DNA of 33,652 nucleotides from Melioribacteraceae bacterium (GTDB taxonomy: Bacteria; Bacteroidota; Ignavibacteria; Ignavibacteriales; Melioribacteraceae): positions 1 through 33,652 of the forward strand of contig WGCV01000049.1 of NCBI GenBank assembly GCA_015493615.1, in the 5' to 3' direction. The notes beneath the pieces were generated by a model. The model made no database searches. It saw only the letters and a list, made by a program, of their open reading frames with translations, and had not been told where the DNA came from. Both the position numbers and the translations under genes were made by a program. Shown here one piece after another: positions 17,278 to 33,652 of the stretch (position 1 is its first letter; every line of letters starts with the position of its first letter).

Positions 17278-19359
17278 TCATTTCAAAATCATCATTTTCT
17301 TTGTCAAACTCATTCTTCCGGCTTCCAACCGATAAAAATAAATTCCAGCCGGGAGTTTATCTATATATTCCGACGGATTAAAGATTACGGAATAATTTCC
17401 CGCGGTTTGATATTTATTCACAATTACAGCTACTTCGCGACCGAGTATATCGTAAACTTTAAGTCTAACCCGGTAAGCCGAAACGCCGCCCGCTAAATCT
17501 AAATTCGGAATTGAGTAAGATATCGTCGTTGAGCCGCTTCCCTTTCCTTCGCCATTAACATAAAAAGGATTGGGATAATTTTGATTTAACTTAAAACCGT
17601 CCGGCTGTAAATTATCATCCACCGAATTGAAATTGTTAAATGCAACGGTGTCGAGCGTTTGAAACTCGTTCATCGTTAAAGTATAATAGCGGTTTTCAGA
17701 TTCCATAACGAGGTTGCCTGTCTCTTGAACTCCGAATCTGTAAATCAGCTGAGAACCGGCGTCGTCGAAATCAAAAGTCAAAGTCAATTCATAAACTCCG
17801 TCTCCGTCGTCGTCGGTCATCGGCTCGCTGTTGGTTGAACCGCTCAACGGCGGTATGTTTCCGCGAATAATAACTTCGTCTCCGCTCCCCAGATTAACTC
17901 CGCTCATATCAACGAGAAACGTTACGTTCAAATCGGCTCCGAGCGTAACCTTCTTCGGATAGGAATAATCCCACCAGATTCCGTCGCGATGCGCTCTAAC
18001 TCTGTAATAATAACTTCGCATATTTGACACGGTTACAGTGTAAAACGAATCCGGAATTGAGCTTGAAAGCGTTGTGTAAGGTCCGCCGAACTGCGTAGAC
18101 TGCTGAAGCTGATAATAGTCGGCGTTTTCGTGAACGCTTCTCTGCCACGATAAAACAAACGTAAGGGAATCAATCCTTTCAACTTCGGCGTTAATCATCG
18201 GCGAGGGAACAATCCCTTTCACCGCTCCCACAACCGTATTGTAGCCGCTCATGTTCCAATTGCCGGAAATATCGTACCAACCGATGTAATCTCCGTACCA
18301 CCCCGGATTGACATGGTAATAGTTGTTCGTTTCGGAATAACCGTCAACAACCGCCGCATGTCCGATTCCTGTTCCGGTAATAGAAATGATTCCGGGACGG
18401 GCGTCGAGCATGTTATTCTTAAGCTCGTTCCAAAATCCCGAAGAGCCGGAACTTTTGTAATGTCCGCTGAAACGGAAATAATTTTTCAAAGCGTAAGGAG
18501 CGTCCGACGTACTTGCGGTTGAGCCGTTTGCTTCAAAATCCATATTAACGCTTACGGAAGTATGATAGGTTAAAAGTCCCGCTGCCTGCCGTTGCGCGTC
18601 GGTTGGCAGAACGTTTTCATATTGGTCAAGAGTGTTTGCCCAATCGTAAAAAGTATTGTAAAAATCGGCAAAATGGTAACCGGTATTATTATCCGTATAA
18701 CCGTGGCTTCCCAATCCGCGGACGGGCCATTTGTAATAATTTAATATCTGCGCCATTGCCGTCGCTACGCATCCCGAGGGCCAATGATTGGGAGTGTAGT
18801 AATTATAAAGGGGTTCGCCGTTTACGTAACCTTGTCCCCAATCGGAATTTAAGAACGGTCCGTAAATTTCTTTCGGGATTCCTTTCTCCCACGGAAAAGA
18901 CTCATCCGACAAATAGATATTCCATTCCGAATGATTCTTTCTCAGAACTTCTTCCGGTATTGCGTTATCCGATAAAGCTCTTTGATGATTTTTATATTTT
19001 TCAATCAGAAAATTGTAAACAAAATTATCTTTGCTGAAAAAGTCCGATTTGATTTCCCCTTTTTCCGAGTAACCAATAACCGGAGAAAAATTTTCATCGG
19101 TTGAAATTAAAATAAACCCTTGCGGACTTAAATTAACTGCCCAAGCAACAACATCACCGGAAGATTTTACAGCTTTAATCTCTTTGACGGAATAATCATT
19201 TGAAATATCAAAATCGAGCGTCAAAAAATTATTCTTGAGCCAATTTAACGCCAACTGGCTTATCTCCTTTTTAGTAACATTCCCGGCAAAAGCCGAAACC
19301 GATAAAAGCAAAACAATCGATATTACAAATTTTATTTTCTTCATCTTATTTTTTATCAT
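17278..19359 (-). CDS. C10 family (streptopain-like) cysteine protease with T9SS sorting domain
   Basis: Secreted papain-fold endopeptidase. After a signal peptide (about 1-25) comes a Spi-type propeptide (about 28-130, with VNLSPQGFILISTDEN). The C10 catalytic domain has NHWPSGCVATAMAQILNYY with nucleophile Cys197, and GTGIGHAAVVDGYSE with His334, followed by the HVNPGWYGDYIGWY segment. Downstream are a fibronectin-III-like domain (about 395-470), a beta domain opening NVTFLVDMSGVNLG (about 475-575), and a T9SS sorting domain (NQNYPNPF, LPAGIYFYRL). ATG at 19359 overlaps the preceding gene by 14 nt; ATG at 19344, directly after that stop codon, gives an MKKIKF start and is equally plausible. 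It is the last gene of the nine-gene run and likely supplies extracellular proteolysis. Confidence 0.92.
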   Translation of the reverse strand: MIKNKMKKIKFVISIVLLLSVSAFAGNVTKKEISQLALNWLKNNFLTLDFDISNDYSVKEIKAVKSSGDVVAWAVNLSPQGFILISTDENFSPVIGYSEKGEIKSDFFSKDNFVYNFLIEKYKNHQRALSDNAIPEEVLRKNHSEWNIYLSDESFPWEKGIPKEIYGPFLNSDWGQGYVNGEPLYNYYTPNHWPSGCVATAMAQILNYYKWPVRGLGSHGYTDNNTGYHFADFYNTFYDWANTLDQYENVLPTDAQRQAAGLLTYHTSVSVNMDFEANGSTASTSDAPYALKNYFRFSGHYKSSGSSGFWNELKNNMLDARPGIISITGTGIGHAAVVDGYSETNNYYHVNPGWYGDYIGWYDISGNWNMSGYNTVVGAVKGIVPSPMINAEVERIDSLTFVLSWQRSVHENADYYQLQQSTQFGGPYTTLSSSIPDSFYTVTVSNMRSYYYRVRAHRDGIWWDYSYPKKVTLGADLNVTFLVDMSGVNLGSGDEVIIRGNIPPLSGSTNSEPMTDDDGDGVYELTLTFDFDDAGSQLIYRFGVQETGNLVMESENRYYTLTMNEFQTLDTVAFNNFNSVDDNLQPDGFKLNQNYPNPFYVNGEGKGSGSTTISYSIPNLDLAGGVSAYRVRLKVYDILGREVAVIVNKYQTAGNYSVIFNPSEYIDKLPAGIYFYRLEAGRMSLTKKMMILK

Positions 19360-21301
19360 AAACGCATCTGAATCCGAGATTAACCAAACCCTTGTCAGGA
19401 TTGATTCCCAGTCGCATAGTGCTTCTCAAAACGGCGTACTCGGTGTCCCAAGCTCCTCCTCTGATTGATTTCATCGTAGCTGTCGAATCCTTAATAAACG
19501 GGTTCTTAACCGGAGCGCTTCCCAACTTCTTATAAATTCCGTAAACGTAGTCGTCCGCCGTCCATTCCCAGACGTTTCCGCTCATATCCTTAACTCCGTA
19601 ATAGCTCGACGTTTTGTAGTAACCGACCGGAGTAGTCCCCGGCATGTTGAATTCAAACGGGTCGTCCGTTCTATCGTAATTTGCCAAGTTTTTTTTCATC
19701 ATGTCGGATCTGACCGAGTAGAAAGATTTTTTATTCTTGCGGTAATCCCAGCTTGCCGCTTTTTCCCATTCAGCTTCGGTCGGCAATCTTCCTCCGTAAT
19801 ATTTTGCATATTCCGACGCTCCCCAATATGTAGCCAATATTACGGGAAAATACTTTCTGTTTTTCTTTACCTTAAATTTATTGCGCTTGAAGAAAATCTC
19901 CGCATAAGGGTTGCCGGCGTCGTAAAGAATTTTTGAATTCCGATTCAAAATAACTTTTCCGTTTTTAACGCTGATTTTATCCTTTGATAAGTAGTTATTT
20001 AAGAACTTGGCAAACTTGTAATTACTCACTTCATATTTATCGATAAAATAAGAATCGAGATAAACCTCGTGCGCGGGTTTTTCACAACTCCAAACCTCTT
20101 CGCTGTTCGTTCCCATTACAAACTTTCCAGCCGGAATTTTAACTCTTGCGTTTATATCTTTCGGGCGAGAGACTCTGCCGGTAAAAGGTTTTTCATTCTT
20201 CCGCGAAGTAAAAATCGAATCGCGGACAAACGAATACAAATCCGTTAAAAGCCGCGCCGTTTTATCCTGCGCTTTCAGCGGGATGCGCATCGTGTTGGGA
20301 GTTTCGAAATGCAATCCGTTTCTGAGAAAATCTCTTCTGAGCGCGCCGTACGTCCGAGCGCCGAGTCCGGTGTAAAAAAAGTGAAGTTTTACGCCGTCGT
20401 AATAATAGACTTTGTCCTCGGGTAAATTACCGAAATATAAATCGGGCGGATTCTTGTAGTAATTTTTTCTGTTGCGATAGTAAAAAGCTTTAATTCTTCT
20501 TAATTCCGCATCTGAAAATCCCATGCCCATTCCCTCGATAACGGGACGCTCGATTTTCCGTCCGTCCGGATATTTCACCGTTAAATCATGTCCGTGAAAA
20601 CTGCAGTACAACTTAAACCGTTCTCCGTATTTCATTTTACTGTTCGTAAGAACGCTGTCCTGAAAAACTTTATATTTTGCTTCCGCCGCTTTATTCCATT
20701 CCCTAACGGGGATTACGCCTCTGTTTCCCTTTTTCGGCTCCTTCATCAACGGACGGTTGCAGTCGTACCAAATTCCTCGATATGAAACTCTGCATCCGTA
20801 CGCGGCGGTCGAAGGAATTCCGGAAAGCCGCGTCATCTTCTTTACTACCGCGCCGGTTTCGTTATCGCAGTCGCCATGCGGCGCGCCGTAAGCGTAGCCC
20901 TTCCATTTTGAAAGAACGCCGTGATAATTTTCAACCTTAAAAGCGATTGGTTTAGGAGAAAGCGAAGTTTCGCTTAATTTGATTTTTTTTATTTTTATCG
21001 AATTGAAGCCGGACTTAAATTTAAAAGCCTCCGCAATTTCTTTATGAACGGCAAACTCGTTATCCTTCCCGAAAAACATGTAAGGACGCAAATCCATTTG
21101 ATAACCGTTGGACAAAATACGGATCGGCGTTCCTTCTTTAATTCCGTTTTCCTTAATGAAATTCCTGCTGAAAAATATGGAAGGTCCCAGCTGTCTTGTC
21201 GCGACGGGAGGTTTAACTAATTTCAAATTGAATGAATTATTGCCGGAACATGAAAATGAAATTACCGCAATTAAAATTATCAGACTAAGCTTCTTTAGCA
21301 T
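19346..21301 (-). CDS. Lipoprotein with N-formylglutamate-amidohydrolase-like and SUMF1 (FGE-like) halves
   Basis: A 651-residue predicted lipoprotein: the N-terminus ends SFSC, giving lipidation at Cys18. Residues 120-360 resemble the N-formylglutamate amidohydrolase/zinc-peptidase-like fold: APHGDCDNETG (140-150, His142 with acidic residues), RGIWYDCNRP (175-184), SFHGHD (234-239) and HFETPNTMRIP (331-341), in the order expected for metal ligands and the catalytic acid. Residues 386-651 are a SUMF1/FGE-sulfatase domain (IPAGKFVMGTNS, LPTEAEWEKAA, DMSGNVWEWT, SIRGGAWDT, NLGFRC). The active cysteine pair of true formylglycine-generating enzymes is missing (T/V-type residues after RGGAW), so this half is probably structural, as in GldJ/GldK lipoproteins. 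A perfect AAGGAGGAG site precedes the ATG. It overlaps both neighbours. The N-terminal assignment is tentative. Confidence 0.75.
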   Translation of the reverse strand: MLKKLSLIILIAVISFSCSGNNSFNLKLVKPPVATRQLGPSIFFSRNFIKENGIKEGTPIRILSNGYQMDLRPYMFFGKDNEFAVHKEIAEAFKFKSGFNSIKIKKIKLSETSLSPKPIAFKVENYHGVLSKWKGYAYGAPHGDCDNETGAVVKKMTRLSGIPSTAAYGCRVSYRGIWYDCNRPLMKEPKKGNRGVIPVREWNKAAEAKYKVFQDSVLTNSKMKYGERFKLYCSFHGHDLTVKYPDGRKIERPVIEGMGMGFSDAELRRIKAFYYRNRKNYYKNPPDLYFGNLPEDKVYYYDGVKLHFFYTGLGARTYGALRRDFLRNGLHFETPNTMRIPLKAQDKTARLLTDLYSFVRDSIFTSRKNEKPFTGRVSRPKDINARVKIPAGKFVMGTNSEEVWSCEKPAHEVYLDSYFIDKYEVSNYKFAKFLNNYLSKDKISVKNGKVILNRNSKILYDAGNPYAEIFFKRNKFKVKKNRKYFPVILATYWGASEYAKYYGGRLPTEAEWEKAASWDYRKNKKSFYSVRSDMMKKNLANYDRTDDPFEFNMPGTTPVGYYKTSSYYGVKDMSGNVWEWTADDYVYGIYKKLGSAPVKNPFIKDSTATMKSIRGGAWDTEYAVLRSTMRLGINPDKGLVNLGFRCVYDKK

Positions 21302-22427
21302 AGCTTAGCTCCTCCTTATTTTCTTTACTCAAATAGCCGAGGGCAAACTCTTCCATTGACTTGTACATCGGCAAAATTTTATCAATTAAAATGTGTTCGT
21401 TATCGCCGTGATGATCTTCCCCGACCATCTTAACAATCACAATCGGGACTCCGGCGTTAGCGTAAAACCGCGCGTCGGAAGAGCCGTTTTCCGTTCTTAA
21501 TGCAATTTCTCTTCCGAAATTCTTTTCCATAATCTCTTTAAGCTCAAGAGCGTAGGGAGAATCGGGATTTATGAATACCCGTTCACTTTTAACAAAAGGA
21601 GTAATTTCCGAATAGTTAAATTCGTCTTTTATCTTCTCGATCAGCTCATCGGTCGTAATATCTTCAGTAAAATAGATTGTGATTTTGGCTTCCGCCAAGT
21701 CCGGAGTATAAAACTCCTTGTTATGAACTTTAACGTCGTAAACGGCATAAGTTGTATGCCAATTATCTTCGTCGGTTGCGCTGCCGTTTTCGGAAAAAAG
21801 CTTATCTAATTTTTTATAATCGTCAACAAACAAATCAAAAGCGTTTTTCCCTTTCCACGGATAGGGATGCCGGTCGGGATTCGCCTCGGTTTTCATCCTG
21901 AATTTTAAGATGCCCTTCTCCCCGTAGATTACTGAGTAATTATATCCGCCGTCGCCGTTAAAGAGTAATTCGGCGGAGTATCCCAGTTCCGCCATTTTCT
22001 CTGCGCCGTTCTCGCTTCCGATTTCCTCGTCAAAAGTAATTATCAGACCAACGTCCAGGTCGGGATTATCCTTAACAAATTTCATCGCCAAAGCCACAAA
22101 AGACTTCATATCAACGCTCCCGCGTCCGTAAAGTTTATTTCCCTCAATGAGCGGCGTAAACTGTTCATCCTTTCCGTTAACAACATCAAGATGCCCTTGG
22201 AATAACAGCTTGGGACGTTTTGTTTCTCGCGCTGCAATAAACAAAGCTGGAAAACCGTTGAACGAATGTTCATTAATTACAACGCCGCTGTCGGAAAAAT
22301 AGCTTTTAACAAAGTTTACCGTCTTCTTAAATTCAGTAAAATTTTTCGGCGTCGTCTTAAACGAAATCATTTTTTTTATCAGTTCAAGTAATTCGATTTC
22401 CCTTTTGTCAATATTTCTATTTTGCAT
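21285..22427 (-). CDS. M20 family metallopeptidase (ArgE/DapE-like)
   Basis: Two-zinc M20 hydrolase, cytoplasmic (no signal peptide), acting on a small peptide or N-acylated amino acid. Ligands are in the usual order: GHLDVV (His79, Asp81), GRGSVDMK (Asp106), ITFDEEIGSENG (catalytic Glu134, metal Glu135), NGDGG (Asp159), and a C-terminal histidine in EDHHGDNEH (about His345). Length 380 is normal for ArgE/DapE deacylases, but neither biosynthetic role has support from neighbours; a dipeptidase role fits the adjacent peptide transporter better. The ATG lies within the last codons of the XRE gene (11-nt overlap) and its end overlaps the lipoprotein gene by 17 nt. Confidence 0.88.
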   Translation of the reverse strand: MQNRNIDKREIELLELIKKMISFKTTPKNFTEFKKTVNFVKSYFSDSGVVINEHSFNGFPALFIAARETKRPKLLFQGHLDVVNGKDEQFTPLIEGNKLYGRGSVDMKSFVALAMKFVKDNPDLDVGLIITFDEEIGSENGAEKMAELGYSAELLFNGDGGYNYSVIYGEKGILKFRMKTEANPDRHPYPWKGKNAFDLFVDDYKKLDKLFSENGSATDEDNWHTTYAVYDVKVHNKEFYTPDLAEAKITIYFTEDITTDELIEKIKDEFNYSEITPFVKSERVFINPDSPYALELKEIMEKNFGREIALRTENGSSDARFYANAGVPIVIVKMVGEDHHGDNEHILIDKILPMYKSMEEFALGYLSKENKEELSYAKEA

Positions 22428-23241
22428 TCAATTGGTCCTTAAAAAACTTTATTACCTCTTTCCTTTCGGAAATCTGCGCAAACTTGAACTTAAGCGCTTC
22501 GACTTCCGTAAGGAAATGATTCAAAATCGATTCGTGCGTCTGCCTGAAAAAAACGCTTCCCAAATCAAACAGAATTACCTCGCGATTGATTATTTCGTAG
22601 TTCACAAGAAAAAACTGGCGCGGAATAAGAACTACTTCAAAATTAAGCGCGTCGTTTTGCAACCTCTCTATCACTTGCTCGATGCTATCATAAACAAGTT
22701 TGGGGGTAAGCAAATCAAAAGGTGGACGAAGACTTATGTAGTCAATCAATTCGGAATAAACGACTATCTCAAGCCGCATTTTTTCCTTGTTTACAATAAC
22801 TTCCTTCCTCTTTTCAAAAGCGTTCAACGCGGCGCCGATATCCTTCTTCGGAAGCCGGTAAATCTTTTCAAGAAATTCTTTTCGTAATTCGGTTGACTGG
22901 TTAACAATACTAAGATTTCTCGAAACCGAGATCCTTTCTCCGCCGGTGGGACCGAACCAAATATTTTCAAATTCGGCATAACTCAAAGGAGCTTCGTGCG
23001 GGCTTGAAAATATAGGGAACGTATTAACTTCAATATCGAGAAGCGAATCTATGCTTAAATGAAGTTCCCGGCTTATCGCGCTAAGTTTTTCCACGCTTGC
23101 GTGATGATGCCCGTTTAAAATCGAATACAACGTCTGAAGTTCAATTCCGGTCCGGCTTGCAAGCTCTTTAACTGAAATATTATAGGAATTCATCGCCTGA
23201 CGAATTTTTTTTCCTAATTTTGCTATGTCAATTTCACTCAC
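22417..23241 (-). CDS. XRE-family helix-turn-helix regulator with unrecognised C-terminal domain
   Basis: DNA-binding regulator. Residues 7-69 form a Cro/CI-type HTH (KLGKKIRQAMNSYNISVKEL, then SRTGIELQTLYSILNGHHHASVEKLSAISREL). The remaining 200 residues are not a domain I can name; they contain aromatic and acidic stretches such as LSYAEFENIWFGPTGGERI and FEVVLIPRQFFLVNYEII, suggesting an alpha/beta ligand-sensing or dimerisation module. Start is GTG at 23241, overlapping the previous stop by 8 nt. Being inside the transporter/protease run, it is a natural candidate to control it, possibly through the inverted repeat at 32749-32768; there is no direct proof. Confidence 0.8.
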   Translation of the reverse strand: MSEIDIAKLGKKIRQAMNSYNISVKELASRTGIELQTLYSILNGHHHASVEKLSAISRELHLSIDSLLDIEVNTFPIFSSPHEAPLSYAEFENIWFGPTGGERISVSRNLSIVNQSTELRKEFLEKIYRLPKKDIGAALNAFEKRKEVIVNKEKMRLEIVVYSELIDYISLRPPFDLLTPKLVYDSIEQVIERLQNDALNFEVVLIPRQFFLVNYEIINREVILFDLGSVFFRQTHESILNHFLTEVEALKFKFAQISERKEVIKFFKDQLNAK

Positions 23242-23752
23242 TTTTTATCTCTTTTAATTCGTTAATGCAATCGTTTAATATAATAATTGATTCGTTAAAA
23301 CTCTCTTTTGCCGCTTTGATATAGCCGTCTATCGCCGCGGATACCGCGCGGTTCATCTTCCTTTCTGCGTTGGCGTAAATCGAAATTAAATTAGTATAGT
23401 TTTCAATTTTAATTTCATTGATTAAAGCAAAACGAGCTTCCTCAATATCAGGCTGCGCATCGGTAAATACTTCTTCGATTTTTTCCTTATCGTCGTAAGT
23501 TAAGTTCACTTTATAATATTCACAAAGCTCGGCTAACTTATAAAACTTCTGCAGCAATAAATCGGAACTGACCCCCTCCTCCCCCTTTTTTTCAATATTT
23601 CTTTTTTTCAATTTTCTATCAATCAGAATGGCAATAATCATTACAAAAGACGCCGCCGAAAATCCCGTCCAGTTTATTTCAGCGCCGGAAGCAAAGATAG
23701 CGGCTGCAAATAATGAAACAGCTATTACGATATATAAAGCGACAAATATCAT
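23234..23752 (-). CDS. Hypothetical two-TM protein with cytoplasmic helical domain
   Basis: I do not recognise this 172-residue protein. It has two hydrophobic helices close together (about 3-23 and 31-45), then the basic stretch RKLKKRNIEKK, then about 115 residues of charged helical sequence (LLLQKFYKLAELCEYYKVNL, NEIKIENYTNLISIYANAER). By the positive-inside rule the long helical part is cytoplasmic. It starts one base after the OPT transporter stop with GGA ahead of the ATG, and overlaps the XRE gene by 8 nt. Placement suggests an accessory to the transporter or a membrane input for the regulator; both are guesses. Confidence 0.75.
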   Translation of the reverse strand: MIFVALYIVIAVSLFAAAIFASGAEINWTGFSAASFVMIIAILIDRKLKKRNIEKKGEEGVSSDLLLQKFYKLAELCEYYKVNLTYDDKEKIEEVFTDAQPDIEEARFALINEIKIENYTNLISIYANAERKMNRAVSAAIDGYIKAAKESFNESIIILNDCINELKEIKSE

Positions 23753-23753
23753 T

Positions 23754-25487
23754 TTATCCGAAAACCGTTATTAATGCAAAAACAATAATCATAAGGGCTT
23801 CGCCGAGAATCAGTCCAGCCGAAAATGGAATCCCTTTATTTTCAACCCAATGCTTACCCTTCCACCTCATGAATATTACGCTTAGGATACTTCCGAGTCC
23901 GTACGGCAAAATATACTTCATCGAAAGATACATTGCGATTCCCATAATTACTCCAAGCCCGGGAATAGAAGTAAATGAAAGTATCGCTCCGATAATTCCC
24001 CCGGCAAGAAATTTATCCGCAGGCACATTGCCGTCCACAACAGAATCAATAGTCGCCCCGAGCGCAACAGCTTGCGGCGCTTCGATGTCCGTGCCCGGTC
24101 CGAATCCCGGGAGACGATTTCCCGTTGCGGGATCGATTCCGCCGGAGTTCCAAATAAGCAGCATTACGGATAACGAAATCACAGGACCTATGCCGGCTAC
24201 AAGAAGCTGAAGCGTTTGCTGTTTAATCGGCATGCTTCCCACAAGATGCCCCGTTTTCAAATCCTGCATCATATCTGCGCTTTCCGCAATAGCGACCGAT
24301 ACCGCCGCTCCGATTAACACCGCCGTTGTTACTTCATCGGAACTGAGAAAAAGCATAAGGATTGCAACCGCAATTAAACTCATTCCGCTAATCGGCGTCC
24401 AGTCTGTCATTCCCGTAGCCTGCGAAACGATAATTCCGGCAAACATCAACCAAATTGTACTTACAATTGAGATTAGTATTGCTGTCGGGAGAGAAATATC
24501 CGAAGTAAAATAACTTGAAGCCACAAAGAGCAAAAACGCGAGGAAGATTACTTTGTAAAGAACCGACAAGGAAAGTTCCTCCTTGCCGGAACTTCCAACG
24601 GCGGAATAACTAAAACTTTTGAAAGTCGCTTTTATCGCGGGAATAATAAGAACTATGCTCATTAACGAACCGCCAATAAGCATTCCGATACCGAGCGGGC
24701 GGGTTACGGCGGAGTGAACAAACGATGAAAAATCGGCTTCGGCGATATTCGGCGGGATCATCCCGAGAGAAATGATAACGGGTGTAATAAGCCAATAAGC
24801 CAAAATTCCGCCGGCGAGTACGAACAGTCCGTTGCGTCCCGCAATAAAGCCGATTCCCAAACTAAGCAGGGACACCGCCCAAATATTGTTGATGTAATCG
24901 GGAAGATGAAACAACGGATTTAAATCAAAACTTGCGGGAATAATTTGAGGAAGACCCATAGTCGGGAATTTAATTATAAAGTAAACGGAAGCCGAAATTA
25001 TTCCGCCCCACAACAGTAGTTTTGATTTCTGCAAACCTTCCGCGGGCGAGCGAAGAATTGACGCGATTGCGGTTCCCGACGGAAAGCGAAGACGGTCAAC
25101 GTCAATCATCTGTTTCCGAAGCGGAATAATAAAACCGACTCCAAGAATTGCACCCGCAACGGCAGCCGCAAGCACCCACCAGAAATTAAATTCCGCGCCT
25201 CTGATTAAAAGCACCGGCACGGTAAAAATTACTCCCGCGGTTGAAGTGTTAACTCCCGATGCCACGGTCTGAATTATGTTGTTCTCAATTATTGTTCCCC
25301 GCTTAAAAATCGCGCTCATTATTCCCCAGCCGAGAACCGCCGCAACCGGAGAGCCGTTAGTTGAAAAGCCGAGCACCAAAGCCGCATAGGAAAAACTAGC
25401 CGTCATTAAGATTCCGATAAAAAGTCCTACCGCTACGCCGAGCGGCGTATAATCTTTGTACTCGCTATTCTCGTGAGGATTATTCAT
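23754..25487 (-). CDS. OPT family oligopeptide transporter
   Basis: Integral inner-membrane transporter of the OPT/YSL family, whose members move small peptides or metal chelates, usually with protons. The 577-residue protein is hydrophobic throughout, with roughly 14 membrane segments. Family marks are NNIIQTVASGVNTSTAGVIF (about 69-88), DRLRFPSGTAIASILRSP (131-148) and the repeat-like MTDWTPISGMSL and MMQDLKTGHLVG segments. Its ATG shares a base with the stop of the PorV-like gene (TAATG). With a secreted protease, TonB receptor and M20 peptidase in the same run, peptide import is the best reading; metal-chelate import remains possible. Confidence 0.9.
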   Translation of the reverse strand: MNNPHENSEYKDYTPLGVAVGLFIGILMTASFSYAALVLGFSTNGSPVAAVLGWGIMSAIFKRGTIIENNIIQTVASGVNTSTAGVIFTVPVLLIRGAEFNFWWVLAAAVAGAILGVGFIIPLRKQMIDVDRLRFPSGTAIASILRSPAEGLQKSKLLLWGGIISASVYFIIKFPTMGLPQIIPASFDLNPLFHLPDYINNIWAVSLLSLGIGFIAGRNGLFVLAGGILAYWLITPVIISLGMIPPNIAEADFSSFVHSAVTRPLGIGMLIGGSLMSIVLIIPAIKATFKSFSYSAVGSSGKEELSLSVLYKVIFLAFLLFVASSYFTSDISLPTAILISIVSTIWLMFAGIIVSQATGMTDWTPISGMSLIAVAILMLFLSSDEVTTAVLIGAAVSVAIAESADMMQDLKTGHLVGSMPIKQQTLQLLVAGIGPVISLSVMLLIWNSGGIDPATGNRLPGFGPGTDIEAPQAVALGATIDSVVDGNVPADKFLAGGIIGAILSFTSIPGLGVIMGIAMYLSMKYILPYGLGSILSVIFMRWKGKHWVENKGIPFSAGLILGEALMIIVFALITVFG

Positions 25488-26530
25488 TAGAATCTAAATT
25501 CCAGTCCCATTATGTTAACGCCGCCTAAATCTCCGTAATTAACCCAAACATAATCGATAGAAACATCGCTATCGATAATTTGACTGAAGTTAAGTCCGAA
25601 ACCGGCGGAAAAATTTTGCGTATCATAAAAGAACCTGTAACCTGCGCGAAGATAAAAAATATCGTTCCATCCATATTCCGCGCCTATGTTGATTCTGAAC
25701 GGATCGTCAAAACTGTCGATGATGCTTCCCGAAAGGAGCAGCTTATGTTCCGCGTTTTTAATCCAGGTTGTTTTTCTTCCTACGACAACAGCCGAGACGC
25801 CGAGAGAAAAACTAGTCGGAAGCGGATACTTATCCATAGCTAATTCGGCTTTTGGGGAAGGACTTCCCGGGAAATCATCCGGTTTCCTTTTAAAGAATAA
25901 AAGATGCGGTCCGTCGGTTATTCCCATATCCGTCCCAAGATTAAGAATATTCATTCCGATTCTCAAACCGAGTTCGTCAATGTTGTAAATCGTCCCAATG
26001 TCGAATGCAAAATTCTGCGCCGTTTCCATCCAAATCCGCTCGTAAATATATTTTGCGGTAACGCCGACATGCACTCGGTCTGTCAGCTGTCTGGAATAGT
26101 TAAGCGCGATTACCGTATTGTTGGCGTCGAATGTTTCGCCGGTTCCCTCGGGATTCTGAATTGTCGTAACGTCCATTTCCCCAACCGATAAATACTGAAC
26201 CATAATCCCGATTCCGTCGTCGTCTGTAAGCGGGAAAGTCAATCCGGCAAAATGCCGCTGGATATCGGCGTACCGCTGCCCGAATTGATACTGCACAGTC
26301 GGTTTTTTAATTAACGATGTTCCCGCCGGATTCCAAAAAAGCGTCGAAGCGTCGTCGGCTACTCCCACATACGCTCCGCCCATCCCGATCGCCCGCGGGC
26401 CTACGTCCATTAGCAAAATATTCCCCGAAGTCGTCCCGATTTTAGAGCTTAAATCTTCCTGCCCATAACTTTGCGACACGGCAAACTGGAAAATAAATAA
26501 TATGTAAAATAAAAATCTGAAATTCTTCAT
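25487..26530 (-). CDS. PorV/PorQ family outer-membrane protein
   Basis: Predicted 14-strand FadL-like beta-barrel of the family that includes PorV and PorQ, T9SS components; PorV shuttles cargo to the cell-surface attachment step. Residues 1-24 are a signal peptide (cut near SYGQ). The hallmark GPRAIGMGGAYVGVADDAST (45-64) is followed by LFWNPAG (65-71). The end IMGLEFRF has the terminal aromatic residue of barrel proteins. I chose the ATG at 26530; the codon before it is TTG and unlikely. The gene lies right after the 1061-aa secreted protein and before the OPT transporter. Whether it is a dedicated export partner for its neighbour or a substrate porin is open. Confidence 0.88.
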   Translation of the reverse strand: MKNFRFLFYILFIFQFAVSQSYGQEDLSSKIGTTSGNILLMDVGPRAIGMGGAYVGVADDASTLFWNPAGTSLIKKPTVQYQFGQRYADIQRHFAGLTFPLTDDDGIGIMVQYLSVGEMDVTTIQNPEGTGETFDANNTVIALNYSRQLTDRVHVGVTAKYIYERIWMETAQNFAFDIGTIYNIDELGLRIGMNILNLGTDMGITDGPHLLFFKRKPDDFPGSPSPKAELAMDKYPLPTSFSLGVSAVVVGRKTTWIKNAEHKLLLSGSIIDSFDDPFRINIGAEYGWNDIFYLRAGYRFFYDTQNFSAGFGLNFSQIIDSDVSIDYVWVNYGDLGGVNIMGLEFRF

Positions 26531-26539
26531 CAATCAAAC

Positions 26540-29500
26540 CTATTTGATTATAGCAAATTTATCTACTTTATGAGTTCCGTCCGGAGATTCGACAGTATAA
26601 ATATAAACTCCGTAAGCAACTTCCAACTGGGATTCGTTCTGCAGGTTCCATCTCTCCTCGCCGACGCTTGAGCTGCTGTGATAGAGCGTTTTAACCAAGT
26701 CGCCCCGAAGCGTATAAATTTTGATTGTGCATTCCGGCGGCAGATGCGTAAATCTTAATTCGCGCGTGTATCTGTCGCTTCTTGCGGCTCCCTGCTCGGC
26801 AAGGTTGTAACCGATATAGGGATTGGGAACGACTTTTATTTTCGAAAAATCATAACCGTTTTTGGAAGTCATTAATTCGCTTGTATTAACAATATATTTA
26901 TCGTTATTCTTGAACGGCTTCTTAGTATGATAAACATAAATATCGCCGGCGGAAGGAGCCAGAGAAGAATCGCTCCAATTAACCGTAAACTGCCACGTTC
27001 GGTGCTGAACGTCCGGCTCGAGCAGATAAACAAAATCGCCGCTTGCCCAAGGCGTTCCGGGATTTCTCATATATAAATTAACGGGCGAAGTCATTTGCGG
27101 ATCGTTCGTAATATTGAAAACTTGGAACGGAACCTTTGCGCTTGTCGGCAGGTTGTAAAATTTCAAACTGGAATCGCCGAACACAATGGCATAATCGCAT
27201 TCCAATCCGCTCGTATCATTCAATTCCGTAAGAGCCGTAAAATCATAATCGGATGTATCGCCAACCACATTATTCCAACCTTGGTCTAATTCCTCCAAAA
27301 CATTATGATTAATAACTTTCAAACCGATTCCGTCAAAAATCGGTCGCGGCTGAGCTATTGCCGATTCGCTCTCTTCCCAGATCCTGCTGAAATCGGTAAC
27401 CACATATTTACTTTTCGTTTCATCGTAAACGTCAAAGGTAAGGGAATCGGCGGCTCCTTTAAACTCAATTCTGTATGTATCGCCGGTTATTGCAATCGGG
27501 TCTATTGTCTCAACCGAAATCGGTCCCGTAGCCAATCCTTCGGTATGAATTACGTTCGGATCGGCTTCGCCGGGAGTAAATCCCTGCGGAGTAACGCCCG
27601 GAATAACATCTACAGTTTGAATCAATCTCGGATCGTTTCCTTTGTAAGATTCGAGAGAAGGCTGCCCCGCCGAAACGACCGGATAATCATAAGCCGTAAT
27701 TGTGTAACGGTATCTTACTCCGTTCAGAACATCATGATCAACAAATGTATATTTCAATCCCGAATTATCTCCGAGATTAAAAAACGGATTAAGCGGATCT
27801 TGCCCCGACCACTCGTCTATTTTATCATAAATTGCAAGAGGCTTGTAACCGACAATCTTTTCGCCGGTGTAGTCGTAAATAGGCGTTCCCCATTCCGGTT
27901 CCCCTTGTCCGTCAAGATTTGCCTGCGTGCGGTAAATTCTGTAACCTTCAAAATCTTTTTGCTTAGTAACAATCTCGTAGGAATCTTCCGATTTCGAATC
28001 CCAGTAAAGAGTTACTTTTCCATCTTCTCCGTAAACGACAGGCAAATCGTTGTTATCCAAAACTTTTGTCCCAACCGCTGATAGCTTGGGAGCTTCCGGC
28101 GGGCGGAATCCGATAAAATTATTGTTATATAAACTGTCCGCCTGAACAAGCGCGTCAAACACCGACTTAAATCTTACATCCGGCGGATTTGTTGGAAATC
28201 CGTCAGCATCAAGCGGACCGGGATTCGGAACGCCTCCGACTATACCGATGTGAATCGGGATAGTGTCTCCGGGACTTATTGTAAAAGGTCCCGAACTAAA
28301 CCAGAACTGAACATCGGGACGGCTCCCGACAGGGTAGCTTTCCTGATAATCTTTCAGCAGTTCGATATCGTCCATGTGAGGATCGGTTCCGTGAAACCAT
28401 TTTGCTCTGTCCGCTTCCGGAACAAGTTGCGGCTTGCCGGAAGAGATAGCGTAGAAAGTTTTTTCTAACTGTGCGTTTACGGGAGCCGGGCGCATCGCTT
28501 CATCCTGATCAAACCAGTGAAAATCCGTTATGCCGATTTCCGGACTGTTGGGGTCGCTAGGATTTTTTTTCGGCGTCTTAAAAAAGTTTATTCCGTAAGC
28601 CGAAACCGGTCCAGTATTCTGAGGATAAACTTGATCGGTAAAGTAATCCTGTTTATCGTGAGCGATAAAAACGTCAACCGTTCCGTCGCCGTCGTAATCG
28701 TAAATCAATCCGTAATCATCCTCAGCCCAAGGAGTCGCCTGGCGAAAATTAGAGCCGGGGACTAAGTATCTGCCGGGCAAGTCGGGATCGACAAAAAACG
28801 CAAAATAAACGCTGTCGATTGTTCCGGTGTAGTGATGACGATTCGGGTCGTAAAATTTTGATTTCGGATCGTTCAGTTCTTCTTCCGTATGATAAATAAA
28901 GTTGATATTAAAAAAAGTTACATTCTCGTATAACGGAGTTGAATAACTGTAGCCGGAAACTTCCATATCGATGCCGACCGGATAGCCGTATTTTGCAGTT
29001 GTAGCCCCCGAGCGGATTCCGTTATATTTATCGGAAGCGATAAAATAAATGTCTTTGTTCGACGTAAAGTTGCCCGGAATTTCCTGTCCGTAAGTCGGCG
29101 AACTTTCATCCGGATCAACAGCCCAATGTCCGGGCCAGTGATATTCACCCGGTGTGGAAACCCAGTTCCCCGAGTCGTCAAAATATCCTTGAGGCCAGCT
29201 CGTCGGGAAAGTGCTTGTAGCTACCATCGCCATATTATCCTGCAGAAAATCTCCGTGCAGATATTTGCTCGAATTGTCGAGAGCTTCCCAATCGGTAAAA
29301 TTAGCTCCGTCTCCCTGAATGCAGTGGATAGCCGAAAAAGATTCGATCGCGTTATACTCTTTGCTTCTGTCTTCCGGCAGCGGATCTCCGCCGGTATTCT
29401 GCGCGCCCCAAGGTCCGGGAGGCATTAATAGCACGGGAGCGATCCATCTTACTTCGCCCCAATCGCCGTGGAACGCGCCGGGGTACCAGCTCTGATAGCC

Positions 29501-29725
29501 GGGAGGATCATATCCGCTTAATAATCCGTAGTTGTAAACGCCGTGGACTTTCATTTTTCCGGCGTCCATAAAACCGACCGCTCTGTCAAAAACGGACTTC
29601 GGTTTTTCCAAAGGAATTTTGTTATTATCGTTCTGCTCCTTCTTATCCTGAGCAAAACTTACTCCGATTACAAAAAGGAGTATAAGTAAAATTGTTCTTT
29701 TCATTATTTTAAATATATTTTTCAT
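26540..29725 (-). CDS. Large secreted protein with Fn3-like region and VVPNPY-type C-terminal sorting domain
   Basis: A 1061-residue exported protein with no named catalytic domain. The signal peptide ends near VSFAQ (residue 26). An alternative ATG eight codons in (29704) would give a more compact signal, MKRTILLILLFVIG. The middle has an Asp-rich calcium-type loop DYDGDGTVD (343-351), an SSGPFTISPGDTIPI stretch (477-491), and a fibronectin-III-like part at about 545-680 (GKVTLYWDSKSEDSYE, EGYRIYRT, YRYTITAYD). The last 97 residues, from VVPNPYIGYN, resemble T9SS C-terminal domains (YGVYIYTV, FAIIK) but with VVPNPY in place of NYPNPF. It starts on the stop of the TonB receptor gene (TAATG). 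The position suggests a surface partner of the receptor, analogous to SusD; this is an inference. Confidence 0.8.
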   Translation of the reverse strand: MKNIFKIMKRTILLILLFVIGVSFAQDKKEQNDNNKIPLEKPKSVFDRAVGFMDAGKMKVHGVYNYGLLSGYDPPGYQSWYPGAFHGDWGEVRWIAPVLLMPPGPWGAQNTGGDPLPEDRSKEYNAIESFSAIHCIQGDGANFTDWEALDNSSKYLHGDFLQDNMAMVATSTFPTSWPQGYFDDSGNWVSTPGEYHWPGHWAVDPDESSPTYGQEIPGNFTSNKDIYFIASDKYNGIRSGATTAKYGYPVGIDMEVSGYSYSTPLYENVTFFNINFIYHTEEELNDPKSKFYDPNRHHYTGTIDSVYFAFFVDPDLPGRYLVPGSNFRQATPWAEDDYGLIYDYDGDGTVDVFIAHDKQDYFTDQVYPQNTGPVSAYGINFFKTPKKNPSDPNSPEIGITDFHWFDQDEAMRPAPVNAQLEKTFYAISSGKPQLVPEADRAKWFHGTDPHMDDIELLKDYQESYPVGSRPDVQFWFSSGPFTISPGDTIPIHIGIVGGVPNPGPLDADGFPTNPPDVRFKSVFDALVQADSLYNNNFIGFRPPEAPKLSAVGTKVLDNNDLPVVYGEDGKVTLYWDSKSEDSYEIVTKQKDFEGYRIYRTQANLDGQGEPEWGTPIYDYTGEKIVGYKPLAIYDKIDEWSGQDPLNPFFNLGDNSGLKYTFVDHDVLNGVRYRYTITAYDYPVVSAGQPSLESYKGNDPRLIQTVDVIPGVTPQGFTPGEADPNVIHTEGLATGPISVETIDPIAITGDTYRIEFKGAADSLTFDVYDETKSKYVVTDFSRIWEESESAIAQPRPIFDGIGLKVINHNVLEELDQGWNNVVGDTSDYDFTALTELNDTSGLECDYAIVFGDSSLKFYNLPTSAKVPFQVFNITNDPQMTSPVNLYMRNPGTPWASGDFVYLLEPDVQHRTWQFTVNWSDSSLAPSAGDIYVYHTKKPFKNNDKYIVNTSELMTSKNGYDFSKIKVVPNPYIGYNLAEQGAARSDRYTRELRFTHLPPECTIKIYTLRGDLVKTLYHSSSSVGEERWNLQNESQLEVAYGVYIYTVESPDGTHKVDKFAIIK

Positions 29726-32634
29726 TAATAACCTGCTCCGCCAAATTGAACTTCAAGTCCGAAGTAAATTGTTCTCGGTAAACCGAAATTATTGTTGTTG
29801 CGCGAATCCCAGTAAGTGGAAGACCTTGTGTAAAAGGAGGATGTTCCCGGATTCGTGGGAGAACCCGTTAAAGTATAGCCGGAAATTACGTTTTTCGTAT
29901 CAAAAATATTTTTGACCTGAAACAGAGCGATAAATTTCATTCCGTTCATTCTCCACAATCTTGATATTCTCACATCAAATCTGTGGGAAAAGGGCCAATT
30001 TGCAGAATACGGCTCTACGATTACTCCTCCTTTGATTGTAGGAGTGTAAGGCATACCGCTTGCGCCGTAGTAATTAATTGCAATATCGGAATTCCCGAAG
30101 GGCTTAAATCCAAGTATCTCAATTCCTCCATCCTTGGGAAGCGAGTATTGGAAACTGGCGCGAATTACGTGAGTCTGATCCCACGGAGCCGTAGTTTCCT
30201 TTTTGGGAATATTATTTTCGGTATCGCCCGACCAATAACCATCCCAAGATGTCGGCTGCAAAACTTTCGCTTTGGAATATGAATAATTAATATAAAAGCT
30301 GTAATTATTCGATAGTCTTTTCTTCAGATTAATCTCCAAACCGCGCGCCGAACCGAGATTGTTGTTGACAAAAATCGAGTAGGTAAAAGGATTATCCCGT
30401 CCCGGGTCGGAGTATGCAGGCACTACAACAGAGCCGACTTGATTAATTGTTTCCTTGTTCCACAAATTAATTTTGATTACATAATCATCCAGAAATTCCT
30501 GCTGAAGCGCTATTTCGTACTGCACCGATTTTTCGGGAGACAAGTTGGGGTTGCCGATCAAGTTTCCTTTTACAACGCTGATATCTCTGTTGCTCCCCGT
30601 TGCGCGGTACATATCCCGATAGTTCGGCGTCTGATAAAAATGCCCGAAGTTGAAGGAAATTACTGACGATTCCGTCAGCGGATAAGCGATTCCGATGCGC
30701 GGACTGAAACTCAGCTTCGGCTTTACTTTAATCAGCGGATTAAAATGTATCGAATCGCTTGAATTATCCTGCGCGGGAAGCGGATCAAACGGGTTAGCCC
30801 AAGTGTAGCCGCCCGAGTTCAAATAATCCATACGCCCGCCTACATTAAAGATAATGCTCTCAAACTCGGCTTTAACCTGCAGATACAAAGCGCCTTCAAG
30901 CGGTTTATAATGATAAAGCGTAGGATATGGATCAACACCGGAAACATTCTGATAGGAGTGATAATCCAAATCTATCAAGTTTGTTTGAAAGCCCGTCTCA
31001 ATCATATAGCGTTCGGTAACCTGACTTGTAAAATCAAATCTCGTTTCGTAGTTCGTGCTGAAATCGCCCGAGTACCAGCGGTTATCAGCCGACAGATAGA
31101 ATGAAGATTCAAACGGATCGCGCACGGCTTCGGAACTTGCGTAAGGTATATATTCCGAAGGGAGTTTAATATTATCATCCGGAGGTCCGAATATATTAAA
31201 CTTACTTGCGTAACGCCGGCTGTAATCCTTCAAAATTCTGATTCTTCTTCTTTCAAAAAACCTTGATAACCGGAGGGAATAAAATGTTGAATTACTTAAG
31301 GTGTGGTTAAATGTAAGGGTTTGCTTATCGCTCGATAAAATCTGTATATTTTGCCCTTTCATATTATAATCATAATAAGCATTAAAATTATTGAATTGCC
31401 GGTAACGCTTATCCATCAAAGATGAAAAAACAACGCGCAAATTCTTAATAGGTTTAAAAGTAAATTTACCGAAAAAATTGTAGTAGTTGTTCCATCCTAA
31501 ACCGGTCCAGCCCTTGTACATATCTATCGGATTGATTTTTCTCCCGTCAGGCCCGATTACCTTTTTCCAATTTTGACTTAGTCCCGCCTGAACGGAGTCT
31601 AAACTTCCGTAGCGTAAATATCCGTTAATAATATCGCCGGATGTCGGCAGCTCTAATAATTCGCCGTCGGAATCAAGCTGAATCGTGCGATTATCGTCCC
31701 AAGTTATGTTATCGAACAATAATGTGGTTCCGCTGCTTGCGCTAACTTCACTCGAAATAAAATAAGAAACGCTATGTAGAAACGGGACTCTCCCGCTTAA
31801 ACTCCCTTGAAAGTTTTGAAGACGGAGAGCTTTACTTCTTCCGTTAGTAATAAAATCTGCGCCAAGTGGATTTGAAGACCAGTATCGCACGCTCCCGGCT
31901 GTTTTTTCCGAGCCGTCCTTTGTCGTCAGGTTAATCACGCCGGAAAGCGCATTTCCGTATTTGGCGCTGTAACCTCCCGATTCAATCGCCACCTGCTTAA
32001 TCGCATTTTTACTAATCTGCGTTCCGAATCCTCCGAAAACCGGATTTGAAACTTTAACTCCGTCTATCATCAACGCCACTTCGTTGCTGCGTCCTCCGCG
32101 AAGACGAATATCGTCAATTCCGCGAGCGTTATATCCAGCTTTGGCATTGGGAGTATTCGATAAAACGCTTATGTTGGATTGCGTGGAAAGGACTTCCTGC
32201 AAATTCTCCACCGGAAGTTTCTCCAGTTCGTCCGACGAAAGAGTGGTTACTTTAGTCGTTGCATCCTTCTGTATCAATTTCTCTTTAGGAGTTACGATAA
32301 CTTCCTGTCCGAGAGAAACCGACGCTTCTTTTAACCTAAAAGTAAGCGTGGTTGTAAGTCCGGGCTTAACGAGGACATTGGTAATCCTCACTTTTTGATA
32401 ACCAATATAGGAGGCGACAATCGAATATTTTCCTGGAGAAATATTAAGTATTATGAAATGTCCGTCTAGTCCGGTGCTTGCGCCAAGACCTTCTCCTTGA
32501 ACAATCACATTAACTCCGGGCAATGGATTCCCCGATTCGTCAAATACATTTCCCGCAATTTTTCCGGGGACTTGCGCAAATATTGTTACCTGAATTGCGA
32601 CAAGAAATAAGAATAGCTTAATAAATTTTAACAC
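29725..32634 (-). CDS. TonB-dependent receptor with carboxypeptidase-regulatory N-domain
   Basis: Outer-membrane active transporter. After a signal peptide (1-21) comes a carboxypeptidase-regulatory-like beta-sandwich (about 24-102: GKIAGNVFDESGNPLPGVNV, GLDGHFIILNISPGKYSI). QEVIVTPKE (110-118) looks like a Ton box. The plug runs about 125-240, with LRGGRSNEVALMIDGVKV and GGYSAKYGNALSGVINLTTK, followed by a large barrel to residue 969. This is a SusC-like architecture though somewhat short. Start is GTG at 32634; an in-frame stop lies five codons... to six codons upstream and no ATG is available. It is the first gene of the nine-gene run and overlaps the next by one base. The substrate is unknown; the neighbours point to peptides. 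Confidence 0.93.
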   Translation of the reverse strand: MLKFIKLFLFLVAIQVTIFAQVPGKIAGNVFDESGNPLPGVNVIVQGEGLGASTGLDGHFIILNISPGKYSIVASYIGYQKVRITNVLVKPGLTTTLTFRLKEASVSLGQEVIVTPKEKLIQKDATTKVTTLSSDELEKLPVENLQEVLSTQSNISVLSNTPNAKAGYNARGIDDIRLRGGRSNEVALMIDGVKVSNPVFGGFGTQISKNAIKQVAIESGGYSAKYGNALSGVINLTTKDGSEKTAGSVRYWSSNPLGADFITNGRSKALRLQNFQGSLSGRVPFLHSVSYFISSEVSASSGTTLLFDNITWDDNRTIQLDSDGELLELPTSGDIINGYLRYGSLDSVQAGLSQNWKKVIGPDGRKINPIDMYKGWTGLGWNNYYNFFGKFTFKPIKNLRVVFSSLMDKRYRQFNNFNAYYDYNMKGQNIQILSSDKQTLTFNHTLSNSTFYSLRLSRFFERRRIRILKDYSRRYASKFNIFGPPDDNIKLPSEYIPYASSEAVRDPFESSFYLSADNRWYSGDFSTNYETRFDFTSQVTERYMIETGFQTNLIDLDYHSYQNVSGVDPYPTLYHYKPLEGALYLQVKAEFESIIFNVGGRMDYLNSGGYTWANPFDPLPAQDNSSDSIHFNPLIKVKPKLSFSPRIGIAYPLTESSVISFNFGHFYQTPNYRDMYRATGSNRDISVVKGNLIGNPNLSPEKSVQYEIALQQEFLDDYVIKINLWNKETINQVGSVVVPAYSDPGRDNPFTYSIFVNNNLGSARGLEINLKKRLSNNYSFYINYSYSKAKVLQPTSWDGYWSGDTENNIPKKETTAPWDQTHVIRASFQYSLPKDGGIEILGFKPFGNSDIAINYYGASGMPYTPTIKGGVIVEPYSANWPFSHRFDVRISRLWRMNGMKFIALFQVKNIFDTKNVISGYTLTGSPTNPGTSSFYTRSSTYWDSRNNNNFGLPRTIYFGLEVQFGGAGY

Positions 32635-32690
32635 GGCTTCACAAAGTTTTTATTGTTTAGCCATAAAATATATCAAAAGAAATGATAATG

Positions 32691-32698: not shown

Positions 32699-32748
32699 AA
32701 ATTGGATTTTTTTCTCATTTGAATATTGATTGGGAAAAATTCCTCGAT

Positions 32749-33416: not shown

Positions 33417-33420
33417 CTTT

Positions 33421-33651: not shown

Positions 33652-33652
33652 A

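What the first reader, a model, noticed from the sequence alone, without database searches (positions are those of the whole stretch)
17278..32634. Nine-gene run that looks like a complete protein-to-peptide acquisition locus
Seen: TonB receptor, 1061-aa secreted protein, PorV-like barrel, OPT transporter, two-TM protein, XRE regulator, M20 peptidase, FGase-like/SUMF1 lipoprotein and C10 protease follow each other on one strand with overlaps or gaps of at most 6 nt. Known: C10 enzymes are secreted endoproteases, OPT moves peptides, M20 enzymes cut dipeptides or acyl-amino acids, TonB receptors import large substrates. Inferred: a peptide counterpart of a Sus-type sugar locus, with the VVPNPY protein in place of SusD and a dedicated PorV-like barrel. 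I know of no described system with this exact set.
Basis: partly seen in the sequence, partly recalled or inferred. Interest (0 to 1): 0.72.

Follow-up and report, generated by a model that had tools for sequence, protein, structure and literature searches.

The report
Conserved T9SS–TonB–OPT peptide-uptake operon
A run of ten genes in a little-known bacterium looks like one conserved kit for cutting up proteins at the cell surface and pulling in the pieces, and it contains a small, unnamed partner protein that accompanies one class of peptide-type transporters in very different bacteria and archaea.

Summary
The nine genes are real, co-directional and nearly gapless. Their order recurs in relatives as far as contigs reach, except two loci, and relatives add a tenth gene, 14754-17057. 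The receptor/1061-aa/PorV triad is a common multi-copy module; its 1061-aa member ends in a weakly matching T9SS-type tail. The OPT has the barley YS1 fold and its three proton-coupling aspartates. The two-TM protein, without Pfam or NCBIfam family, lies downstream of OPT in 77 of 80 loci from many phyla including Thermococci, is fused to OPT in two, and is absent at 23 of 23 paralogous OPT loci: most likely an OPT subunit. The lipoprotein is double-psi barrel + N-formylglutamate-amidohydrolase-like fold + SUMF1 domain; its N-terminal part occurs in 6 of 58 genomes, all carrying the transporter core. Peptide uptake, much like the P. gingivalis gingipain–RagAB–OPT route, is the best reading; the substrate is inferred. 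Thiol or gamma-glutamyl peptides and metal chelates remain open.

The parts
29725..32634 (-). TonB-dependent outer-membrane receptor, 969 aa, with N-terminal carboxypeptidase-regulatory-like domain; not SusC by NCBI's cut-off
   Evidence: PF00593 80 bits, PF07715, PF13715; TIGR04056 102 bits against cut-off 368; orthologues in L118, L121, L125, and partly L111
26540..29725 (-). 1061-aa secreted protein, no Pfam family; C-terminus like T9SS PorZ/PorU tails; presumed surface partner of the receptor
   Evidence: NF052228 residues 985-1061 E 8e-6, below cut-off; 9/15, 7/15 and 6/15 family members match PorU, PorZ and TIGR04183 at E up to 0.01; matches in 58 of 58 genomes
25487..26533 (-). PorV/PorQ-family outer-membrane barrel, presumed cognate T9SS shuttle for the 1061-aa protein
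   Evidence: NF033709 184.6 bits, cut-off 90; next to the 1061-aa relative in 27 of 27 loci
23754..25487 (-). OPT-family inner-membrane transporter, YS1-like fold, D362/D405/D409 match the proton-coupling aspartates of HvYS1
   Evidence: PF03169 193 bits; profile hit to 7wsr E 5.5e-15; fold match Z 31.4 for the fused homologue L146
23234..23752 (-). TM2: two-TM protein with helical domain, presumed cytosolic; invariant E130, R135, S138, D142 in the 40 sequences aligned; presumed OPT subunit
   Evidence: no Pfam/NCBIfam family; downstream of OPT in 77 of 80 loci; fused to OPT in L146 and L151; alignment A5
22417..23241 (-). XRE-type regulator, 274 aa, conserved C-terminal domain without a Pfam family
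   Evidence: PF01381 36 bits; orthologues 51-98% identical in six further genomes
21285..22427 (-). M20 (ArgE/DapE-like) metallo-hydrolase without an evident signal peptide, presumed cytosolic peptidase or acyl-amino-acid hydrolase
   Evidence: PF01546 93.6 bits; closest solved chain 2rb7 E 2e-38
19346..21301 (-). Lipoprotein (lipobox by eye) of three domains: double-psi barrel (22-112), N-formylglutamate-amidohydrolase-like fold (118-364), SUMF1/FGE-like domain (385-647)
   Evidence: PF03781; Foldseek/VIA 2odf Z 13.3, 203 residues, rmsd 3.9, and p97 N-domain barrels Z about 12
17278..19359 (-). C10 cysteine protease with Spi-type prodomain and T9SS sorting tail; Cys197 and His334 align with interpain A
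   Evidence: PF01640, PF13734 and TIGR04183 over cut-off; alignment to 3bba; positions
14754..17057 (-). Tenth member: 767-aa secreted protein with T9SS sorting tail and a BNR-repeat match under cut-off; 220 nt after the C10 gene here
   Evidence: PF18962 47.5 bits, TIGR04183 48.6 bits; follows C10 in L112, L117, L121, L122 and, after one inserted gene, in L125

Best explanation
A ten-gene operon for acquiring peptides from outside protein. Proposed steps: the C10 protease (T9SS-secreted) and the surface amidohydrolase lipoprotein cut or trim proteins at the cell surface; the TonB receptor, with the T9SS-delivered 1061-aa partner (carried by its own PorV shuttle), moves the pieces across the outer membrane; the OPT transporter, in complex with the two-TM subunit TM2, moves them across the inner membrane with protons; the M20 hydrolase breaks them in the cytosol; XRE controls the operon. 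Shown here: gene set, order, conservation, domain make-up, T9SS tails (two firm, one weak), OPT fold and aspartate triad, OPT-TM2 linkage and natural fusion. Inferred: substrate, direction of flow, complex formation, co-transcription, places in the cell.
For: Conserved order across Melioribacteraceae and a Caldithrix contig; L125, the Caldithrix locus, branches first in the clade of the midpoint-rooted OPT tree, so the set looks old. OPT, XRE and M20 orthologues all-or-none in 7 of 58 genomes; lipoprotein N-terminal part in 6 of these 7 and nowhere else of 58; C10 in 4 of those 6 against 4 of the other 52 genomes, the two misses (G003, G004) having contigs that end inside the lipoprotein gene. 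T9SS in the genome: SprA 943 bits. C10 active-site Cys/His conserved. OPT has YS1 fold and D446/D490/D494 equivalents. TM2 downstream of OPT in 77/80 loci, fused in 2, absent at the 23 paralogous OPT loci returned. Precedent: in P. gingivalis an opt mutant takes up several dipeptides less and a pot-opt double mutant scarcely grows, with RagAB as the supposed outer-membrane route (PMC8048996, passages read).
Against: No substrate, expression or complex was tested. OPT-fold proteins also carry metal chelates and glutathione. L119 and L120 keep the core without C10, lipoprotein and triad, so no single surface protease is essential to it. In 67 loci of other phyla no further same-strand family beside OPT/TM2 recurs in more than 13 loci (only a few of those families were identified), so no peptidase goes with OPT-TM2 in general. 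In G031 the C10 matches lie on another contig than the core. One genome (G224) has TM2 away from its OPT. The 1061-aa/PorV pair occurs widely without OPT.
Confidence: 0.62

Rival explanations
1. The operon takes up one special small peptide class, gamma-glutamyl or thiol peptides such as glutathione or Cys-Gly, mainly for sulfur or cysteine, rather than general protein fragments.
For: In L119 the core is followed by gamma-glutamyltransferase, a TonB receptor, AhpC/TSA and DsbD-type genes, and in L120 by AhpC/TSA and a class-V aminotransferase. A yeast OPT-family protein is described as a glutathione transporter (PMC12687453, start of abstract in a listing).
Against: None of these genes is in the window's run, and the five triad-type loci that reach past the lipoprotein continue with C10 and the 767-aa protein. 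L119/L120 are a pair inside the triad-type clade. A broad secreted C10 protease fits general protein better.
Confidence: 0.15
2. A metallophore or metal-chelate uptake locus: TonB receptor plus a YSL-like inner-membrane transporter, with M20 hydrolysing the chelator.
For: The closest solved fold is barley YS1 with Fe(III)-deoxymugineic acid; TonB receptors classically import metal complexes (recalled); NCBIfam's receptor matches under cut-off include haem and siderophore types.
Against: No chelator biosynthesis or metal-regulator family among the run's matches; protease, lipoprotein amidohydrolase and T9SS tails do not fit; YS1 is the only OPT among solved chains found, so the fold match cannot separate substrates.
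Confidence: 0.1
3. The receptor and PorV barrel serve secretion or surface assembly of the C10, 767-aa and 1061-aa proteins, not import.
For: A TonB-type receptor, Oar, is needed to secrete protease PopC in Myxococcus (PMC6434023, start of abstract in a listing). PorV has a proposed shuttle role in the T9SS, and a FadL-type barrel sits with surface lipoproteins in the Bacteroidota BAM complex (PMC12578637, passages).
Against: The C10 and 767-aa proteins have their own T9SS tails and the genome has SprA; the inner-membrane OPT and the M20 would have no role.
Confidence: 0.05
4. Neighbouring but functionally separate modules: a generic receptor triad, an OPT-TM2-XRE-M20 module and a protease module that happen to be adjacent.
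For: Modules occur apart: relatives of the 1061-aa protein in 58 of 58 genomes, the core without triad in L119 and L120, C10 in four genomes without the core.
Against: Near-zero gaps here, same order in a Caldithrix locus at 29-62% identity, lipoprotein confined to core genomes.
Confidence: 0.08

Closest known systems
P. gingivalis gingipain - RagAB - POT/OPT - dipeptidase pathway
   Same: Secreted cysteine protease (T9SS route recalled), TonB-dependent outer-membrane peptide entry, OPT among the inner-membrane routes, cytosolic dipeptidases (PMC8048996, passages)
   Different: There the genes are not one operon (recalled); the protease is of another family (C25, recalled) and the outer-membrane partner a SusD-type lid; here C10, a T9SS-type-tailed 1061-aa protein and a PorV barrel, plus TM2 and the amidohydrolase lipoprotein. 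Whether P. gingivalis Opt has a TM2 was not tested
Sus-type (SusCD) polysaccharide utilisation loci
   Same: One locus that joins surface enzymes, a TonB receptor with a partner protein, an inner-membrane transporter, a cytosolic enzyme and a regulator (general make-up recalled)
   Different: No SusD, receptor far below the SusC cut-off, no carbohydrate enzyme among the matches, T9SS-tailed parts
Barley YS1 / OPT family
   Same: Fold (Z 31.4 over 527 residues) and proton-coupling aspartates
   Different: A second small membrane protein, TM2, goes with this prokaryotic OPT clade; substrate unknown
N-formylglutamate amidohydrolase (Atu2144, 2odf; enzyme name recalled) and SUMF1/GldK-type proteins
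   Same: Fold of residues 118-364 and sequence family of residues 385-647
   Different: Joined in one lipoprotein behind a double-psi barrel; no Pfam match for the amidohydrolase part; only two Cys (406, 646) in the SUMF1 part

Membership tests
SusC/RagA receptor | Score over NCBI cut-off TIGR04056 | tested here: not met
   102.3 bits against 368.25
SusCD / PUL locus | SusD-family partner protein in the locus | tested here: not met
   No SusD family among ten proteins at E 0.001 nor any Pfam family in 15 members of the 1061-aa family at E 0.01
OPT transporter family | Pfam OPT over gathering score | tested here: met
   PF03169 193.2 against 25.8; the equivalog TIGR00733 (158 against 182.5) and TIGR00728 (128.0 against 128.35) are not reached
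OPT transporter family | YS1-type fold with the three proton-coupling Asp | tested here: met
   Z 31.4 for fused homologue L146; D446/D490/D494 align with D362/D405/D409
Peptidase C10 | Family score, catalytic Cys and His, Spi prodomain | tested here: met
   PF01640 138 bits, PF13734 30.3 against 25; alignment with interpain A
T9SS cargo | Type A sorting domain on C10 and 767-aa proteins, SprA translocon in the genome | tested here: met
   TIGR04183 29.0 and 48.6 against 23; Pfam PF18962 47.5 for the 767-aa but 22.5 (cut-off 27) for the C10 protein; SprA 943 bits
T9SS cargo | Sorting domain on the 1061-aa protein | tested here: inconclusive
   C-terminal match to PorZ E 8e-6 below cut-off; 6 of 15 family members match TIGR04183 at E up to 0.01, best 0.00093
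PorV/PorQ family | NF033709 over cut-off | tested here: met
   184.6 against 90; PorV and PorQ equivalogs not reached
N-formylglutamate amidohydrolase | Family by sequence | tested here: not met
   No amidohydrolase family in 8 members up to E 1, only weak barrel-type and other matches; the only PDB sequence match is a decarboxylase at E 0.66
N-formylglutamate amidohydrolase | Fold | tested here: met
   2odf Z 13.3, 203 of 250 residues; model confidence mixed, mean pLDDT 61; catalytic residues not mapped
Formylglycine-generating enzyme | Pair of redox-active cysteines | tested here: inconclusive
   Only Cys406 and Cys646 in the domain; position of the pair recalled, not aligned
OPT-TM2 two-component transporter (proposed here) | Physical complex | not testable with these tools
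   Linkage and fusion only; TM helices of TM2 in the fusion model have block pLDDT 41-67

The most novel reading that the evidence does not exclude
One clade of OPT transporters, in archaea and many bacterial phyla, is a two-subunit transporter whose small partner (TM2: two TM helices and a helical bundle with a conserved E-R...R..S...D motif) has gone unnamed; in Melioribacteraceae and Calditrichota it was built into a T9SS-assembled, TonB-driven operon that carries protein fragments from the surface protease to the cytosolic peptidase, a non-SusCD counterpart of a polysaccharide utilisation locus, with XRE as its sensor.
Probability: 0.5. Interest if true: 0.75.

Novelty: new variant of a known kind. 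Interest (0 to 1): 0.6.

Why it matters
OPT transporters are common in bacteria (56 of 58 genomes here), but to my knowledge (recalled) few of their substrates are known. A conserved operon with the protease, outer-membrane route, transporter, presumed subunit and peptidase side by side makes the function directly testable, and a TM2 family that goes with OPT in archaea and bacteria would mean that this transporter class has been studied without one of its parts. It also suggests how T9SS bacteria may build SusCD-like uptake without SusD.

Tried and rejected
Promoter/terminator scan: promoter-like sites are near the shuffled expectation (41 against 32.5 +/- 5.9), terminator-like sites above it (36 against 20.1 +/- 4.5) but on both strands and not sorted by place; neither is used as evidence. 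First fusion alignment (A7) put all 38 TM2-only rows on the wrong part of the protein; it was dropped for folding (its OPT rows were used for an OPT profile, and the tree) and replaced by A9 after trials (38 of 38 motifs in place in the chosen trial; A9 itself was not checked again). Eleven of 17 genomes hit by the TM2 profile in the 395-genome search scored 20-26 bits, had no OPT beside them and were treated as chance. The two weak XRE hits (G025, G041) cover the HTH only and were left out of the core count; the weak M20 matches outside the seven genomes (28-35% identity, most over part of the protein) likewise. Of the 30 loci three contig fragments of this same locus (L073-L075) were left out of the PorV count. 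The TM2 soluble bundle matched only de novo designed ABLE bundles (Z 11-13) and common helical proteins below that: uninformative. A first profile of OPT against PDB sequences (A2, six close rows) found nothing; a wider profile did. The receptor has no PDB sequence match at E 1e-5. Literature: the rows listed by searches (25 of 73; 15 of 24; 15 of 55; 12 of 62; 1 of 1; 10 of 78) show, by title and start of abstract, no paper on a small partner of OPT or on this gene set; the rest of those hits were not seen, and subscription papers and preprints are not held, so this is no proof of absence.
Full report
Observation. Behind the run lies a 767-aa T9SS-tailed protein (14754-17057) after 220 nt, then genes of nucleotide, lipid and recombination housekeeping. 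The genome has a type IX secretion system: SprA scores 943 bits.

Whose genome. The OPT gene product is 99% identical to that of a Melioribacteraceae MAG contig (L111), which has the length and gene places of contig C339 of G004, a genome of the window's own genus. So the window is from Melioribacteraceae (Ignavibacteria).

Conservation. Among 58 genomes (own included) OPT, XRE and M20 orthologues occur together in 7: G000, G002, G003, G004, G027, G030, G031 (OPT at least 71%, XRE 51-98%, M20 46-94%; two HTH-only XRE hits left out). A scan of public genomes with the OPT alignment kept the best 80 of 294 loci. In the 13 with OPT at 62% or more (L111-L122, L125), read by BLAST of the window proteins: TM2 in 13 of 13; XRE in 12 of 12 whose contig reaches; M20 in 10 of 10; SP1061/PorV before OPT in 8 of 10; lipoprotein in 8 of 10; C10 and the 767-aa protein in 5 of 7. 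The misses are always L119 and L120. All ten genes are seen in L121 (Melioribacteraceae) and L125 (Caldithrix, with a glutamine-synthetase gene inserted before the 767-aa gene, and that last gene cut by the end of the fetched stretch); the others are cut by contig ends. In the midpoint-rooted OPT tree of 21 rows this clade is 100/100, L125 branches first and L119+L120 lie inside it, their place against L118 unresolved. So the ten-gene form looks older and the form without triad derived.

The lipoprotein. Its N-terminal 380 residues match 6 of 58 genomes, one copy each, all six among the seven core genomes (hypergeometric 1.7e-7, shared ancestry ignored). C10 occurs in 8 of 58: in four of those six and in four of the other 52 (0.002). 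In G002 and G030 it is the next gene; in G031 it lies on another contig, in two copies. The two misses, G003 and G004, have contigs that end inside the lipoprotein gene, although G003 is given as 100% complete. A model from nine sequences (mean pLDDT 61, much of the N-terminal part 70-92) matches Atu2144, 2odf, over residues 118-364 (Z 13.3, rmsd 3.9, 203 residues, 12% identity) and double-psi barrels over 22-112 (Z about 12). That 2odf is an N-formylglutamate amidohydrolase is recalled; the PDB title says only 'gene product Atu2144'. No such family was found by sequence. The SUMF1 part has only Cys406 and Cys646, which argues against formylglycine-generating activity.

The triad. The 1061-aa protein has matches in all 58 genomes, 1 to 20 each, many covering only its C-terminal half or tail (at most 13 candidates per genome were scored). 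In 27 of 27 loci checked (25 paralogous, 2 of this locus, of 30 returned) a PorV/Q barrel is the neighbour; the receptor was seen in 6 of 27, the flank being too short in the rest. These loci are the best match of each genome, so weaker paralogues are not covered. The own genome has 14 PorV/Q matches, 9 over cut-off, and matches to the 1061-aa protein beside PorV genes on C44, C60 and C41, the last two over about 100 C-terminal residues only. Fifteen family members match no Pfam family; their C-termini match PorU (9), PorZ (7) and type A sorting tails (6) weakly. I read the triad as a general T9SS-served receptor module, here joined to an OPT operon.

The transporter. A profile of 33 OPT proteins finds barley YS1 at E 5.5e-15, and its Asp446, Asp490 and Asp494, on which the YS1 paper centres its proton-coupling analysis (PMC9691689, passages), align with D362, D405 and D409 of the window protein; D405 and D409 are invariant and D362 nearly so in 33 sequences.

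TM2. A profile started from the window and eight close relatives gained 66 further members in its first round and 3 in the second, by sequence alone, without use of position except that minus-strand ORFs were not taken in. All 78 hits at E 1e-5 lie downstream of OPT on the same strand, in 77 of 80 loci (one split gene gives two hits); 59 begin within 300 nt and 19 further on (309-1473 nt), several inside longer ORFs; what lies between was not examined. The three loci without are L154, L155 and L161, the last cut by its contig end. Hosts include Thermococci, Planctomycetota, Myxococcota, Gemmatimonadales, Cloacimonadota and Thiotrichales. In L146 and L151 OPT and TM2 are one uninterrupted ORF; the two are 88% identical, so this may be one fusion event. 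Controls: reversed ORFs gave no hit below E 0.18 among 5368; 7 of 7 orthologous OPT loci have TM2, 0 of the 23 paralogous ones returned (about 30% identity, flanks up to 1.5 kb) do. Converse: of 395 genomes of the phylum (at most 8 candidates scored each), 6 have a TM2 over 100 bits and 5 of these have OPT beside it; in the sixth, G224, no OPT lies within the 12 kb read and the OPT of this clade (466 bits) lies elsewhere. Forty members share invariant E130, R135, S138 and D142, the others being 15-40% identical to the window protein. The fused protein folds with mean pLDDT 80.7 and pTM 0.82; the OPT part matches YS1 (Z 31.4), the bundle at 690-794 is confident, the two TM helices are not. So contact geometry is not claimed.

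Mechanism. Surface proteolysis by C10 and perhaps the lipoprotein, outer-membrane import by the receptor with its T9SS-delivered partner, proton-driven import by OPT-TM2, cleavage by M20. The chain as a whole is inference. Its closest precedent is P. [quoted passage not shown] there POT, not OPT, is the main carrier. Against certainty: L119 has gamma-glutamyltransferase, AhpC/TSA and DsbD genes and L120 AhpC/TSA and a class-V aminotransferase behind the core, which points to thiol or gamma-glutamyl peptides in that pair; and the only solved OPT found is a metal-chelate carrier.

Verdict.

Noticed in passing
L119:14226-21567, L120:14209-18152: Alternative genes behind the OPT-TM2-XRE-M20 core: gamma-glutamyltransferase, TonB receptor, AhpC/TSA, DsbD (L119); AhpC/TSA and class-V aminotransferase (L120).
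   Followed up: partly
L122:9-2311 (same contig as L105): OPT and TM2 are each split over two reading frames, by decay or assembly error.
   Followed up: no
L118:4510-4971: A small gene that looks by eye like an IS200-type transposase lies between the TonB receptor and the 1061-aa gene.
   Followed up: no
nine loci among L131-L144, for example L133:13081-13845: A shared gene family follows TM2; in L133, the one scanned, it is an FKBP-type isomerase.
   Followed up: partly
L145:12335-14086: A secreted protein that looks by eye like a C69-type dipeptidase follows OPT-TM2.
   Followed up: no
L110 (G040:C294) 2203-8275: A distant M20 homologue (29%) lies near a TonB-receptor-like gene and a T9SS-tailed protein, another possible locus of the kind.
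   Followed up: no
window 22417-23241: The XRE protein's C-terminal 200 residues are well conserved in its orthologues but match no Pfam family; possibly the ligand sensor.
   Followed up: no
window 32635-33652: About 1 kb without a gene of 100 aa upstream of the run, ending at the contig end; room for the promoter.
   Followed up: partly
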